A stretch of DNA of 21,465 nucleotides. Origin: a virus. Where the stretch lies: IMG/VR virus record IMGVR_UViG_3300046534_001058, positions 1 to 21,465 of that record. One strand, 5' to 3'. The notes beneath the pieces are model-generated. The model searched no databases and was not told the DNA's origin. It saw nothing but the letters and a program-made list of their open reading frames with translations. Positions 5,097-19,708 of the stretch are shown here, piece after piece; position 1 is the first letter of the stretch; each line of letters starts with the position of its first letter. Both the position numbers and the translations under genes were made by a program.

Positions 5097-8000
5097 TTAT
5101 AAAGTGTTTTGATAATTTAATAAATAATTCATGTTTTCGCCAAAATCTACGTTATTATTTAGGGTGATATTTGGTTTGTTTTTTCGCATTGATTCCTCTA
5201 GCCTGCTTGTTTGGTTATTTATACTACTTTCAATTCCTTTCATTGCTAAGAAATTCACAAGGTTTGTATCATGACTATTCATGTTAGCATTCATAGAATA
5301 TTGATGAACCCCATCATATAATTCATTTTGACTAAGTGAAGCCATTAATTTATTTGCATCAGGATGAATGATATCATCTTTTTTAACGCTTGTCATGTGG
5401 TTTGCTATCCTTGTTGGACTAAGTTCAATAGAGCCGTCTTTTGAGATTTTAGCCTCTCTTCTTTTCTCTCCCCATATTGCTGCACCCTCATAATCATTAT
5501 ATTTGCCTTTTCCTTCTGCAAATTTTGGAATTGGCGTTGCTAATACAGTTGCAATTTGGATAGCCCCTAAAGCGGCGATAAAAGGAACAAGCGGTAAAGT
5601 TACAACGGCAGCAGCAGCACTCGATATTCCCAATGCTGTATTAAGAGCAATTCCGACTATTGTAGCGGCCTTGTTAAATATGGCTTGTTTTTTTTGTAAT
5701 TTCTTTTTCTTTTCTTCTAATTTTTCTTTTTCCTTTGCTTCTTGCTCTGCTAGTTTTCTTTGAAGAGCCGCATCGCCCTCTGCCATTGCTTGAAGTTTAG
5801 CATATTTATTTTCGTTGGCTGCTAATTCAGCATCTATTTGTGCTATTTTCCCATCAAATAGAACGTTGCCTAGGTCTACTAAAGCATAAAAAGATGCAAA
5901 TGCTAAATCTAATTTTTCTTGCTCTACTGCCGCTTCTTCGTCTAATAATTCTTGAGATTTTTGTGGGATTACTACGCTAGGAGCATCAATTGAAACATCG
6001 TCAGCCGTTGGAGGTGAAATCCCTCCAGTCAGTTTTGTTGCTCCTGTTGCTTTCCCTTTTAAAGTAGTTCCAGTTCTTTTGCCTATTAAAGCCGCTTTAG
6101 CATTTTCGGCTGCTAAAATAGCCGCAGAATACGACTGATAGGCTGCTGTACTGGTTGCTAAAGAATCTCTTTCTTTTTTTAAGTCTGATATTATTTTACT
6201 ATATGAATCTATTGTTCCTTTTTGTGCTATTGATGTTTCTTTAATAGTTGTAACATATTCCTCATTCTTTTTAATTATATCATCTAGGGCATTTAATTGT
6301 AAAGTTTGAGATATAAGAGCCTTTTTTTCTGCTGGTAGTAATTGCGTTGTTATTAAGTCTATTCTCTTGCTTAACTGCCCTGCATTTGCGCCATGACTAT
6401 CATTTACTAAGTCCATTAACATTTTTTGAACCCTGCTAGAAGCATTTGTTTTTTCTAAAGCACCCTTTATCTGGCTTTGAAAATTTATGTGAGCCGCTAC
6501 TGCTTGCCCTGCTCTTTCTTGTCCTTTTGCGTATTGTTGCAATTCCCGACTAAATTTGCTTATAGCAATATCTGTTTTTTGTGCTTCTTTGTTAAATTCT
6601 GACAATTCTTTAGTCGCATCTTTAGCACCACTCCCGAAAGCATCCCAAAGGGCGACTGTTGCTGTTATGGCTATTGCTAAAATCCCAAGGGGCGTTGCTA
6701 CCATTGCCACCTTTAAAGCCCTTAAAGCAATGATTGCTTTATTTATACCCCCATTCATTGCTATTACCGCCACTCTATAAATAACAGTAGCAGCACTCAT
6801 TGCTCCTGTAACTAAAGCACCCCCAATCATGACTGCTTTATATATTAAAAATGATTTTATTGCTATTCCAACCCATTTAACTATTTCTTTTAGGTTTGTA
6901 GCAAGTGCCGTAATCCCTCTTTTTAATCTGCTTGCGACACTATTTGCATCATTCATATTTAGAATAATACCTTGCCACGCCGATCCTAGTAATTTTATAG
7001 CACCATCTAAAGTATCTAGTTCTTTTTTAGCCATCCTGTCTGCTGTCCCTGCTGCATCTTGGAGCGATTTATCTAGTTCTTTTGTTTTGTCTATATTGTT
7101 TGCTAAAACTGCTGCCGAAACTGCTGCCCTTTTTCCAAATTCATTATTAGAAGCCGTTAATTTATCTGTGCTTCCTTTAATCATTTCTAATATTTCGCTA
7201 TAATTTGCGCCTTTCCTTGCTGCTTCTATAAAAATATTCCTTAAAGAAGTGGAACTTGTTGATACGTCAATCCCTGAATCTGATAATTTTCCCATCAAGG
7301 CGATCAAAGTTGTAAATGGTATTCCAGCAGCGTTGGCTGCACCAGCAACAATAGGAATACCTTTTTCTAACTTTTGGAAATTTAAGGCTGATTTTGCAGT
7401 AGAAAGCGAAAGTACATCTAGTATTTTTGGAGCATCCGTTGTTGATAAATCATCAAATGTGTTTACTATCGCCCCTGTTAAAGTTGCTGTCGCTGCTAAT
7501 TCTGAGTTCATAGCGATAGAACCGTTTAAGGTTGCTGCTGTTAAGTCTATTATTTCTTGCTGAGAGAAACCTAATCTTGCGTATGCTATTTGGAGGGACG
7601 TTACTTCTTGTGCTGTTTTAACAGTTGTTTCTCCTAACCTTTGCGATTCATCTTTAAGACCACTCATTTCTCCTTTAGTCACTTGCAATATAGCGGATAA
7701 AGTGGCATTTGATTTTTCGTAAGTTCTAACGGTTGTTATAGCATCTCGCATTACTTGAACAATTAAGAAAGCACCACCGACAAGACCTAAAGCCGATGCA
7801 AATTGCCTAGCAGCACCAGCCGCCCCTTTTAATGCTACTCCGTAATTTCCAACGTTTCTAAAGTTTCTGCCTACTTGGGCATCAACTCTTTTCATCATTG
7901 CATCTTTCCTCTGGATAACTGATGTCAATCGTTTTAAGGATGCTTCTTCTTTTTTGTTTAACTTATTACCTAATTCCTGTTTTAAGGCCAGTTGTTGCCT

Positions 8001-15777: not shown

Positions 15778-17001
15778 TTAGACCCATCTGTCTTGGAGCA
15801 AATCTCTTGCCACACCTGATAGCAAAGCAATACTATCAACGGCATCGTCGTGGGGTGCTTTTCCGTCTTTTGTATAAGAAAATAATTGTTTCATGGCTAA
15901 ATCGTAGTCACTTCCAACCGAATAATCATTCCGAAATACGAAATAATCTCTTAAAAAACCAGCGCTAAGGATAACTCTACTGTGTTTTTTCGTGTGCTGA
16001 TGTATGCCTATAAGGGTTGTCCCTGTAAGTTCATTGTTTATTTGCTTATAAACAACCGATCCATGATTATTGGTTTCTACTGCTAAATAATTTAGTTTAT
16101 GAAACCTTGCTTTTTCTGTTGATGCTGGGATTGAGTAATTTGTATTCTCCCTAGTAAAGAGCCAGTCTGTTACATAGAATTTCTCCCCTATTACAACGCC
16201 CATAGGAAAGGAGTAATAGTCCATTCCTTCATCGGCTACGTCTATTGCGCCTATTGAAACTTCAACAGCATCCCTGTTTAATTCTTCTAATCCAAAGTAT
16301 TCAAAATCGTTATGGTTAAACACCCTTTCCTCGCTTGCATCTATAAACTGTCCGTATATCTCTTGTTGAACTGCTTCTGCGCTTATAGCACCTATTTCCT
16401 TTTCTAGTTCCTGTATGTTTTCCCTAGATAGTTTAGGGTTGTCGTAAGATGATAATTGGACGCCTGCATAACCAGCGTGCTGTTCTAATACTTTTTGCCA
16501 TAGCACCCAGAAGCGATGGGGATTGCCTTTCTTATTGACCTTTCCTTTAGGTGTTCCAAATGCAAATAATTGACTATCCTCGTAATCCATAAGCATAGGC
16601 AAAATAGAGTTTGTATATAAATACTCATTGTTCAAGATAATTCCTGCCTCGTTTAGCCAAATTTTATCATATCCAAAACCCTCTATTGATTCTGGCCTAT
16701 CTGCAGAACGAAAATCAATGTAGCCATCTTCTATTTTTAGTATCTTTTTTTGTGCATTCCACTCGTAATCCAGTTCTGCTCTTTGTATATCTGGCAAAAA
16801 ATATCGCTCATAGTACCTATCAATATTTCCATTAATAGTATCGACCCAAAGAGATTTATCTCCTTGAGCCGTTGTTATTATTACAGCACGTTCAGCGCCC
16901 TGTGTCTTTCCAGACCGTCTTCCTGCTGGTATTGCATTAAACTTTGCTTTGCTTTGTAAGAACGCTTCATACTGCCATCTAAAGAGTGCTAGTTTTCCCA
17001 T
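15778..17001 (-). CDS. terL: Terminase large subunit
   Basis: A 407-residue DNA-packaging motor with an ATPase and a nuclease domain. The Walker A motif is GRRSGKT at residues 27-33. The Walker B strand is YDKIWLNEAGI at 111-121, with Asn-Glu (117-118) instead of the usual Asp-Glu. The coupling motif is FGTPKG at 148-153. The RNase H-like nuclease has AIDVADEG (Asp254), LAVETNNHG (Glu309) and PHDDAVDS (Asp385/386), which form the expected acidic triad. Length is close to the family norm. It overlaps the upstream zinc-ribbon-like gene by 23 bp and is followed by a 125-bp gap before the portal ATG. The motor acts with the small terminase and the portal ring. Confidence 0.96.
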   Translation of the reverse strand: MGKLALFRWQYEAFLQSKAKFNAIPAGRRSGKTQGAERAVIITTAQGDKSLWVDTINGNIDRYYERYFLPDIQRAELDYEWNAQKKILKIEDGYIDFRSADRPESIEGFGYDKIWLNEAGIILNNEYLYTNSILPMLMDYEDSQLFAFGTPKGKVNKKGNPHRFWVLWQKVLEQHAGYAGVQLSSYDNPKLSRENIQELEKEIGAISAEAVQQEIYGQFIDASEERVFNHNDFEYFGLEELNRDAVEVSIGAIDVADEGMDYYSFPMGVVIGEKFYVTDWLFTRENTNYSIPASTEKARFHKLNYLAVETNNHGSVVYKQINNELTGTTLIGIHQHTKKHSRVILSAGFLRDYFVFRNDYSVGSDYDLAMKQLFSYTKDGKAPHDDAVDSIALLSGVARDLLQDRWV

Positions 17002-18100: not shown

Positions 18101-18760
18101 TTACGTTATTTTTTTTAATGTTTGTTTTAGTATTTCATAGCATAGTTTTTTAGGAACTTTACTGCGTTCGTAATTTCCTTTTAATCCTTGTGTTCCTGTT
18201 TTAGATCCTCTTGGTGCTGGTTCGTGTTGGCATTTAGTATTTCCATTAAAACACATTGCTTTAGGCTTCCATCCATTAGGGTTAAAAATATCAAAAATGT
18301 TGTTGCTCCATATATCTGTTGGTTTCATTGCAACAACTTCGGTTTCTTTTGTTTTATAACTACAATATGTAATGCTAGTTCTGTTAATACCTTTAACTTT
18401 TTTTCGCATTTTACCTCTTGGGTTTTCCATAAAAAATATAGCATCAGGAAACCATGTAAATATTTCAAGTGTCTTGTTTAATATTTTCATTCCTAATAAA
18501 GCTTCTTTTGTTTTAGGTGTGTGATCTTCATACCAATGATGTCCAATAGAAGCAACGCTAAAATAAGTGCAAGGAGGTGATGCCCAAATTACATCTGGTT
18601 TAAAATGTATCATATCTTTTGTTAAATCAAGAATATCAATAACTAAATCTATTTTATTAAAATTATTTATATCTACACTAAAAACATCAAATCCCTGTAT
18701 TTCTGCTTCTTTTCCAATACTTCTTGAACCTGCAAATAATTCTAATAGTTTCGGCTTCAT
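18101..18760 (-). CDS. C5 cytosine DNA methyltransferase, short phage form
   Basis: A 219-residue enzyme that transfers a methyl group from S-adenosylmethionine to cytosine in DNA. Motif I is LLELFAGSRSIG (residues 5-16) and the following VFSVDINN is motif II. The catalytic motif IV is WASPPCTYFS, with Cys64. Motif VI is FFMENPRGK, with Glu112. KPTDIWSNN at 146-154 lies where the target-recognition region begins. The C-terminus is a helix (KLCYEILKQTLKK) like the final helix of the family. At 219 residues it is much shorter than restriction-associated C5 enzymes (300-450), and no restriction endonuclease lies beside it. It probably protects the phage genome from host restriction or marks DNA for packaging. 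Confidence 0.9.
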   Translation of the reverse strand: MKPKLLELFAGSRSIGKEAEIQGFDVFSVDINNFNKIDLVIDILDLTKDMIHFKPDVIWASPPCTYFSVASIGHHWYEDHTPKTKEALLGMKILNKTLEIFTWFPDAIFFMENPRGKMRKKVKGINRTSITYCSYKTKETEVVAMKPTDIWSNNIFDIFNPNGWKPKAMCFNGNTKCQHEPAPRGSKTGTQGLKGNYERSKVPKKLCYEILKQTLKKIT

Positions 18761-18784: not shown

Positions 18785-18940
18785 TTAATCAAATGACCTT
18801 TTTCTAAAATTTATAAGATGGTCTTCACATTCTAATTCTGTCCCTACCTTTTCTATATTGTAGGTCTTGCACTCTATGACGTAATGAGTTTCTTTTAGTT
18901 TTAATTCTGGTGCAAATGCTTTAATTTTTAAATGTTTCAT
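18785..18940 (-). CDS. 51-aa hypothetical protein
   Basis: An ORF of 51 codons plus stop from ATG 18938-18940 to TAA 18785-18787. The product (MKHLKIKAFAPELKLKETHY, then VIECKTYNIEKVGTELECED) looks like a small beta domain with two cysteines, C24 and C38, ending HLINFRKRSFD. It fills the space between the secreted barrel-like gene and the methyltransferase, both on the same strand, with 22- and 24-bp gaps. The leader is A/T-rich. No function can be given. Confidence 0.62.
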   Translation of the reverse strand: MKHLKIKAFAPELKLKETHYVIECKTYNIEKVGTELECEDHLINFRKRSFD

Positions 18941-18962: not shown

Positions 18963-19520
18963 TTAATTAAATTTATATCCTATTTTAAAATGTACGCCCC
19001 AACTATATTTATTTCCGTTCCATATTTTATTTTCATCCTGCCTTGTTTGTCCGCTTAATATAGCATTTATATCAAATGTATCAGAAACATTATATCTCGC
19101 AATTGCTTTTAGTTTAATGCTCCCCCAAGTATTAGGGAGCGATTTTCCGCTATCTGTTACCCTTGATATGCTTCTATTTATGAACAAAATTTCTGCTCCT
19201 AAAAGGGTTTCTAGTCCGTTTTGATCTGTAAAAATAAGAGGTTTATTATATTGGAATCCTCCTGCAAAGTATTCTGGATTTAATTCTACAAATTCAGCAG
19301 TTATTCCTGCCTCAGAACCATTTCTGAATTTAGTAACCCAATCAAATGTAAATGCTAAATGACTTGAGGGATAATCGTATGCCCCTAATGTAAGTATTTT
19401 GATATTTGTTCCTATTCTTATCACTTGCTTTTCCCCGAATATTTCGGTGTGGCGTCTGTTTACTTGTGAATTTACTTGTAGTACCATCAATATTGATATT
19501 GTTAATAAAATGTTCCTCAT
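18963..19520 (-). CDS. Exported beta-barrel-like outer-membrane protein
   Basis: A 185-residue protein with an N-terminal Sec signal (MRNILLTISILMVLQVNSQ, cleavage after residue 19). The mature 166 residues alternate hydrophobic and polar residues in about eight segments, among them SHLAFTFDWVTKF, EAGITAEFVELN, TLLGAEILFINRS, GSIKLKAIARYNV and YSWGVHFKIGYKF. The last strand ends in F-N, close to the terminal aromatic that the BAM machinery recognises. This fits an eight-stranded outer-membrane barrel. It is unusual in a phage gene cluster and lies behind the only long spacer of the window. A role in changing the host surface, such as superinfection exclusion, is an inference. It might also be an acquired host gene. 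Confidence 0.85.
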   Translation of the reverse strand: MRNILLTISILMVLQVNSQVNRRHTEIFGEKQVIRIGTNIKILTLGAYDYPSSHLAFTFDWVTKFRNGSEAGITAEFVELNPEYFAGGFQYNKPLIFTDQNGLETLLGAEILFINRSISRVTDSGKSLPNTWGSIKLKAIARYNVSDTFDINAILSGQTRQDENKIWNGNKYSWGVHFKIGYKFN

Positions 19521-19550
19521 GATTTCTAATTTTTAAATTATTAATAAATC

Positions 19551-19575
19551 ATAAAACGGTTTTTATTCGTTTTAT
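19551..19575. repeat. Perfect 8-bp inverted repeat in leader of barrel gene
   Basis: ATAAAACG (19551-19558) and CGTTTTAT (19568-19575) are exact reverse complements separated by 9 bp. It lies 31 bp before the ATG at 19520. It could be a repressor operator or a leader hairpin that controls translation of the exported protein; the sequence does not distinguish the two. Confidence 0.6.
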
Positions 19576-19631
19576 CAGGGACATTTTCTTGCCTTTATTG
19601 TTTTTAATTTAGTTTCTAATTTTACAACCTT

Positions 19632-19671
19632 GCATATAATTCATTGTCTAAAATGACAACGCATTATATTC
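19632..19671. repeat. Long imperfect inverted repeat in the barrel-gene spacer
   Basis: The 17-nt arms at 19632-19648 and 19655-19671 match at 14 of 17 positions around a 6-nt loop. The innermost TTGTC-TAAAAT-GACAA part is perfect. As minus-strand RNA the stem has 14 Watson-Crick pairs plus one G-U pair. No T run follows it, so it does not look like an intrinsic terminator. An operator or a stable RNA hairpin is more likely. Confidence 0.65.
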
Positions 19672-19677
19672 ATTTTT

Positions 19678-19700
19678 GTATGCAATTAAAAAATACATAC
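19678..19700. repeat. Short inverted repeat GTATG-N13-CATAC
   Basis: GTATG (19678-19682) and CATAC (19696-19700) flank a 13-bp A/T-rich core. It lies just after the end of the 73-aa gene (in transcription order) and next to the long inverted repeat. By length alone it could be fortuitous; its clustering with two other inverted repeats in 188 bp makes an operator plausible. Confidence 0.35.
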
Positions 19701-19708
19701 AACAACGG

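What the first reader, a model, noticed from the sequence alone, without database searches (positions are those of the whole stretch)
18963..19520. Phage-encoded exported beta-barrel protein among early-type genes
A Sec signal peptide plus about eight amphipathic strands and a near-terminal aromatic fit an outer-membrane barrel. It lies away from the virion genes and has its own long spacer, which points to independent expression. Phages that make an outer-membrane protein often use it to mask or replace a receptor, so superinfection exclusion or lysogenic conversion is a reasonable hypothesis.
Basis: partly seen in the sequence, partly recalled or inferred. Interest (0 to 1): 0.6.

Follow-up and report, generated by a model that had tools for sequence, protein, structure and literature searches.

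The report
Phage-encoded outer-membrane barrel protein
A virus of flavobacteria carries a gene for a small barrel protein predicted to sit in the outer membrane of the infected cell; it belongs to a family that no database names, found in many unrelated flavobacterial phages and in host chromosomes, and it may act by closing the cell surface to other phages, which is untested.

Summary
ORF 18963-19520 (-), 185 aa, has a Sec signal peptide and eight amphipathic strands ending ...KIGYKFN. AlphaFold2 with an 8-row alignment of phage relatives gives a signal helix plus eight strands (pLDDT 79.5; 42.9 without alignment), matching Ail, NspA, OmpW, OmpA and OprF (Z 10-17). Single-sequence searches find nothing in Pfam, PHROGs, NCBIfam, PDB, phage, plasmid or prokaryote collections, but profile work places it in a divergent family of 150-190 aa exported barrels. 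These occur in Tenacibaculum phages JQ and Gundel_1, Winogradskyella phage Peternella_1, Flavobacterium phage MaF61, several IMG/VR phages including a 368-kb one, and 13 of 299 sampled Flavobacteriaceae genomes. Against profiles built without it, the window protein outscores 30 unrelated flavobacterial barrels in six of six tests. Phage and chromosomal copies are intermixed; phage copies lie in early or accessory regions, in phages with and without an integrase or transposase. The structural reading is therefore well supported by prediction. The function, masking or altering the surface of the infected cell (superinfection exclusion, or protecting progeny from receptor debris), is plausible but inferred. 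"Independent expression" is only partly supported: there is a 188-nt structured spacer, but no promoter was found.

The parts
18963..19520 (-). gene of the exported 8-stranded outer-membrane beta-barrel protein (185 aa)
   Evidence: ORF; AF2 with alignment; fold search; family profile tests
19467..19520 (-). Sec signal peptide, residues 1-18, predicted cut before Q19
   Evidence: sequence; helix 2-22 in the model; same layout with Q after the cut in nearly all relatives
18966..19430 (-). barrel domain, residues 31-185, eight strands
19521..19708 (-). upstream spacer with two stem-loops (about 19671-19707 and 19634-19670)
   Evidence: (z -3.0); no promoter consensus
18785..18940 (-). 51-codon ORF directly downstream, unknown
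18101..18760 (-). short cytosine-type DNA methyltransferase (phrog_757) between the barrel gene and the terminase; same PHROG near the tandem barrel genes of L075
17565..18083 (-). small terminase subunit, start of the packaging module
   Evidence: PF16677, phrog_606
15778..17001 (-). large terminase subunit
   Evidence: phrog_2; relatives

Best explanation
The gene encodes a Sec-exported 8-stranded outer-membrane beta-barrel of a so far unnamed flavobacterial family that moves between host chromosomes and phages. After infection the protein is made, exported, presumably inserted by the BAM machinery, and exposes four loops on the infected cell. Most likely it alters or occludes the receptor surface so that further phages do not adsorb and progeny are not lost on debris of lysed cells. 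Supported by computation: signal peptide, eight strands, barrel fold, family membership, intermixed phage and host copies, early/accessory position. Inferred: insertion in the outer membrane, time of expression, and the effect on adsorption.
For: Fold: pLDDT 79.5 with 8 strands; Z 10-17 to OmpA/OmpW/NspA/OprF/OmpX/Ail, Foldseek best hit Ail. Family: E 2.4e-8 against a 26-row profile, best of 1000 shuffles 0.04; rank 1 of 31 against 30 true flavobacterial OMP_b-brl barrels in six tests, profiles built without the window. Distribution: phages JQ, Gundel_1, Peternella_1, MaF61, IMG/VR phages L072, L075 (two in tandem), L076, L105, L128, L129 and a prophage-like region in G690. Positions: next to HTH, primase, methyltransferase, HNH or terminase genes, not seen beside lysis genes. 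Gundel is a podovirus with no integrase and Peternella is Mu-like (PMC8776804), so a benefit to lysogens alone does not explain the spread. Phage copies are not one clade (AU p 4e-5). A phage exclusion protein that disables an outer-membrane receptor, with prevention of loss on debris as its proposed use, is established for T5 Llp (PMC9586334).
Against: No direct functional evidence. The best-studied receptor-blocking proteins are lipoproteins, not barrels. The chromosomal copies show that the fold also has a host role, so the phage copy could serve that role instead. The window protein sits on a very long branch (2.89) and is at most about 24% identical to any relative, so its function may have drifted. 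The closest phage by terminase lacks the gene. No promoter was identified.
Confidence: 0.45

Rival explanations
1. A fitness (moron) gene: the barrel gives the infected or lysogenic cell a host-type outer-membrane function (adhesion, lipid asymmetry, nutrient passage) copied from host homologues, with no role against other phages.
For: Chromosomal homologues stand in ordinary chromosomal neighbourhoods, in some genomes in several copies; closest folds include Ail; a Mu-like phage and a prophage-like region carry it.
Against: Also in a phage without integrase (Gundel), where the infected cell soon dies.
Confidence: 0.25
2. A helper of lysis or release: accumulation of a foreign barrel weakens or remodels the outer membrane at the end of infection.
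For: Phages of these bacteria must breach an outer membrane, and spanins were recognised in only some of the flavophages listed in PMC8776804; the gene is just upstream of the packaging module.
Against: Not seen next to endolysin or holin genes in the loci read; small 8-stranded barrels are not known to permeabilise (own knowledge).
Confidence: 0.1
3. A passenger host gene or remnant picked up by the phage, with no function there.
For: Extreme divergence of the window copy (long branch); the closest phage lacks it.
Against: Signal peptide, 8-strand pattern and terminal aromatic are all intact; family found again in about ten other phages.
Confidence: 0.1
4. Virion structural protein.
For: Lies within 1 kb of the terminase genes on the same strand.
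Against: Sec signal peptide and outer-membrane fold; position varies between phages and is mostly outside head-tail operons.
Confidence: 0.03

Closest known systems
Ail/Lom family (phage lambda Lom, Yersinia Ail, OmpX; 8-stranded outer-membrane barrels)
   Same: 8 strands, Sec signal, similar size; Ail is the best Foldseek match; Lom is phage-encoded (own knowledge)
   Different: No sequence match; different bacterial phylum; 7-17% identity in structural alignments with Ail and OmpX
Pfam PF13505 OMP_b-brl (small outer-membrane barrels)
   Same: Relatives L117, L128, L110 and the MaF61 protein hit it weakly (E 0.003-0.06)
   Different: All below the curated cut-off; window protein has no hit; true PF13505 proteins score lower against the new family than the window does
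Unannotated exported proteins of Tenacibaculum phages JQ (QIG62289.1) and Gundel_1 (QQV91485.1), Winogradskyella phage Peternella_1 (QQV91556.1), Flavobacterium phage MaF61 (XYH49338.1)
   Same: Same family profile and strand pattern; phage-encoded; signal peptide followed by Q
   Different: 19-24% identical to the window protein; annotated only as hypothetical; text searches of the JQ and Gundel/Peternella papers find no mention of an outer-membrane protein
Phage T5 Llp and other receptor-blocking exclusion proteins
   Same: Phage-encoded, sent to the outer membrane, proposed outcome the same (PMC9586334)
   Different: Llp is a small periplasmic lipoprotein, not a barrel; receptor known there, unknown here

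Membership tests
8-stranded outer-membrane beta-barrels (fold class of OmpA TM domain, OmpX/Ail, NspA, OmpW) | Sec signal peptide without lipobox | tested here: met
   Sequence; helix 2-22 in the model. SignalP itself was not available.
8-stranded outer-membrane beta-barrels (fold class of OmpA TM domain, OmpX/Ail, NspA, OmpW) | Eight antiparallel amphipathic strands closing a barrel | tested here: met
   Z 16.3 to NspA over 145 residues, Z 16.3 to the OprF barrel; amphipathy 0 of 5000 shuffles. Prediction, not experiment.
8-stranded outer-membrane beta-barrels (fold class of OmpA TM domain, OmpX/Ail, NspA, OmpW) | Aromatic or hydrophobic residue at or near the C-terminus | tested here: met
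   ...KIGYKFN: F184 of 185; most relatives end in F, W or L at or close to the last position
8-stranded outer-membrane beta-barrels (fold class of OmpA TM domain, OmpX/Ail, NspA, OmpW) | Located in the outer membrane | not testable with these tools
   needs fractionation
New flavobacterial phage/chromosome barrel family (defined here) | Scores above unrelated barrels and shuffles against the family profile | tested here: met
   rank 1 of 31 in six tests
New flavobacterial phage/chromosome barrel family (defined here) | Subgroup motif DPKM..GPY (subgroup C) or VGD..GN (subgroup B); marks subgroups, not the whole family | tested here: not met
   Window has NIKILTLGAYDYPS at this place; motif only partly kept, so it is not filed in either subgroup
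Ail/Lom family | Sequence match to Ail/Lom models | tested here: not met
   No Pfam, NCBIfam, PHROGs or PDB sequence hit
PF13505 OMP_b-brl | Score above the curated cut-off of 28.7 bits | tested here: not met
   No hit for the window protein
Superinfection-exclusion proteins | Expression blocks adsorption or DNA entry of phages | not testable with these tools
   needs plating and adsorption assays

The most novel reading that the evidence does not exclude
Flavobacterial phages of unrelated types repeatedly pick up host outer-membrane barrels of one fast-evolving family and use them as surface-closing exclusion factors, a Bacteroidetes counterpart of receptor-blocking proteins that works with an integral barrel in place of a lipoprotein; the chromosomal copies may themselves be captured anti-phage surface proteins or the receptors being mimicked.
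Probability: 0.3. Interest if true: 0.75.

Novelty: new member of a known kind. Interest (0 to 1): 0.5.

Why it matters
Receptors and superinfection exclusion are poorly known for Bacteroidetes phages. A recognisable, testable family of phage-encoded outer-membrane barrels, present in isolated phages with culturable hosts (JQ, Gundel_1, Peternella_1, MaF61), gives a direct entry point. It also shows that genes standing as 'hypothetical' in phage records and missed by Pfam, PHROGs and NCBIfam can be resolved by iterative profiles plus fold prediction.

Tried and rejected
Single-sequence searches gave nothing: Pfam, PHROGs, NCBIfam, PADLOC, PDB, phages and plasmids by tblastn, viral and genome contig scans (7, 10), about 790 draws of Flavobacteriia genomes (25, 58; the two marginal hits lie in 736- and 432-aa frames; the first, read, is not a small barrel). 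AF2 without alignment was too poor to use (pLDDT 42.9). The closest phage by terminase (L002, 67%) has no such gene in its 6 kb upstream of the terminase or elsewhere on the contig by search and by a signal-peptide filter, so the gene is accessory. Alignment A10 was dropped because L128 was misaligned; A11 was used for the fold. Idea that phage copies form one lineage: rejected by AU test, with the caveat of long branches. Assembly chimaera: unlikely, since ORFs and phage genes of one strand lie on both sides. Bacteroidetes-type promoter in the spacer: none found.

Full report
What is there. The window is a 21,465-base virus record, a fragment of a tailed phage, by its relatives a phage of flavobacteria: on the minus strand it reads, in order of transcription, a series of small ORFs, the 185-aa ORF of the finding, a 51-codon ORF, a short DNA methyltransferase, small and large terminase subunits, portal, and then head and tail genes (names of the later genes partly from order and length). 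The nearest phages by large terminase are IMG/VR contigs (67% and about 61% identity); annotated relatives include Tenacibaculum phage JQ and Leeuwenhoekiella phage Arctus_1. The ORF is at the stated coordinates.

Search by single sequence finds nothing. Pfam, PHROGs, NCBIfam, PADLOC, PDB sequences, phage and plasmid records, IMG/VR and GTDB contigs, and two draws of about 400 Flavobacteriia or Flavobacteriaceae genomes give no usable hit.

A lead by anatomy. A filter for signal peptide plus small size in related phages picked a 152-aa protein of Tenacibaculum phage JQ that ends VFVKIGYKIW, against VHFKIGYKFN in the window. Its tblastn relatives are in Tenacibaculum phage Gundel_1, Winogradskyella phage Peternella_1 and Flavobacterium phage MaF61, all annotated as hypothetical. 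Profiles then reached IMG/VR phages L072/L073, L075 (two tandem genes) and L076 (a 368-kb phage); the same filter found one in G022 (L093/L105); 13 of 299 sampled Flavobacteriaceae genomes gave matches at E up to 1e-4 (the two weakest, L120 and L121, I left out of the family as generic barrels), and a scan with a subgroup of those gave L128, L129 and L130.

Statistics of membership. With 26 relatives, hmmsearch of the mature window protein gives E 2.4e-8 where the best of 1000 shuffles is 0.04. Since other outer-membrane barrels also score a little (L120), I made a harder control: 30 proteins that match PF13505 from ten of the same genomes. Against profiles built without the window protein it ranks first of 31 in all six tests, for example hhalign 47.5 against at most 29.9 and, for the nearest subgroup, 48.6 against at most 28.2. 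The nearest subgroup is mostly chromosomal, motif DPKM..GPY, which the window only partly keeps.

Fold. With an alignment of eight phage sequences AlphaFold2 rises from pLDDT 42.9 to 79.5, pTM 0.68, with a signal helix and exactly eight long strands. The rows were chosen after comparing subset alignments with the full-family alignment, so the alignment is not blind, but the single-sequence model already showed most of the same strands. Foldseek ranks Ail first, with NspA, OmpW, OmpX and OmpA among the significant matches; VIA-align gives Z 10 to 17 to these and to OprF. Among viral models the hits include proteins named outer membrane protein beta-barrel of uncultured tailed phages and the Gundel_1 protein. 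The alternation of inward and outward residues on the eight strands exceeds all 5000 shuffles; a model-free version is weaker, 40 of 2000.

Evolution and position. In a tree of 28 members phage and chromosomal copies are intermixed (five changes, at least three forced by well-supported branches; a single phage clade is rejected, AU p 4e-5). The window copy has a very long branch, so its exact place is unsure. Phage copies sit near HTH, primase, methyltransferase, HNH or terminase genes, and none was seen in a lysis cassette. L075 repeats the window's arrangement: barrel genes near a methyltransferase of the same PHROG (phrog_757) and upstream of the large terminase. Carriers include a podovirus without integrase (Gundel) and a Mu-like myovirus (Peternella) (PMC8776804), and a 368-kb phage. 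One chromosomal member, in G690, lies beside a head maturation protease and other phage-like genes and is counted as a prophage copy.

How it probably works. The signal peptide sends the protein through Sec, and the barrel presumably enters the outer membrane through BAM (general knowledge). What it does there is inference. A gene kept by phages with and without integrase, in accessory early-type regions, and diverging fast, suits a protein that changes the surface of the infected cell: it may cover or alter the receptor, prevent secondary adsorption, and keep progeny from sticking to debris, the purposes given for T5 Llp (PMC9586334). The main rival is a general fitness function taken over with the host gene. 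I give about 0.45 to the exclusion reading as a whole and above 0.9 to the barrel itself.

What does not hold. The gene is not far from the packaging genes (about 0.9 kb upstream of the small terminase gene), and independent expression is not shown: the 188-nt spacer is real and folds into two hairpins (z -3.0), but promoter patterns are absent or at chance level. Lysogenic conversion cannot be judged from this fragment.

Novelty. Phage-encoded small outer-membrane barrels are a known kind (Lom of lambda, own knowledge; several proteins in BFVD). The sequence family described here has no model above cut-off in Pfam, PHROGs or NCBIfam among the members tested, and text searches of two papers on its isolated carriers find no mention of an outer-membrane protein. 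So: a new family within a known kind, with an untested but directly testable function.

Noticed in passing
window 18101-18760 (-): Short (219 aa) cytosine-type DNA methyltransferase with an SPPC motif, phrog_757, directly upstream of the small terminase gene; the same PHROG lies near tandem barrel genes in L075.
   Followed up: partly
window 19521-19708: AT-rich spacer that folds into two hairpins (z -3.0), with no promoter consensus; possible transcript end or processing site.
   Followed up: partly
L075:5815-6306 and 6514-6999: Two tandem barrel genes whose signal peptides are identical over 19 residues while the barrels differ strongly, suggesting duplication with fast divergence of the mature part, or exchange of it.
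   Followed up: no
G645 contig C3:369553-371612 and other places: Chromosome with five family matches, three of them in tandem; function unknown.
   Followed up: no
L062:10703-10978 and L023:8681-9004: Small exported proteins (91 and 107 aa), apparently not barrels, shortly after the large terminase gene in relatives of the window phage.
   Followed up: no
G427 and G654 (L137:8102-8614, L141:7371-7901): Chromosomal barrel genes just downstream of what look like SUF iron-sulphur assembly genes in two genomes, a conserved neighbourhood (recognised by eye, not tested).
   Followed up: no
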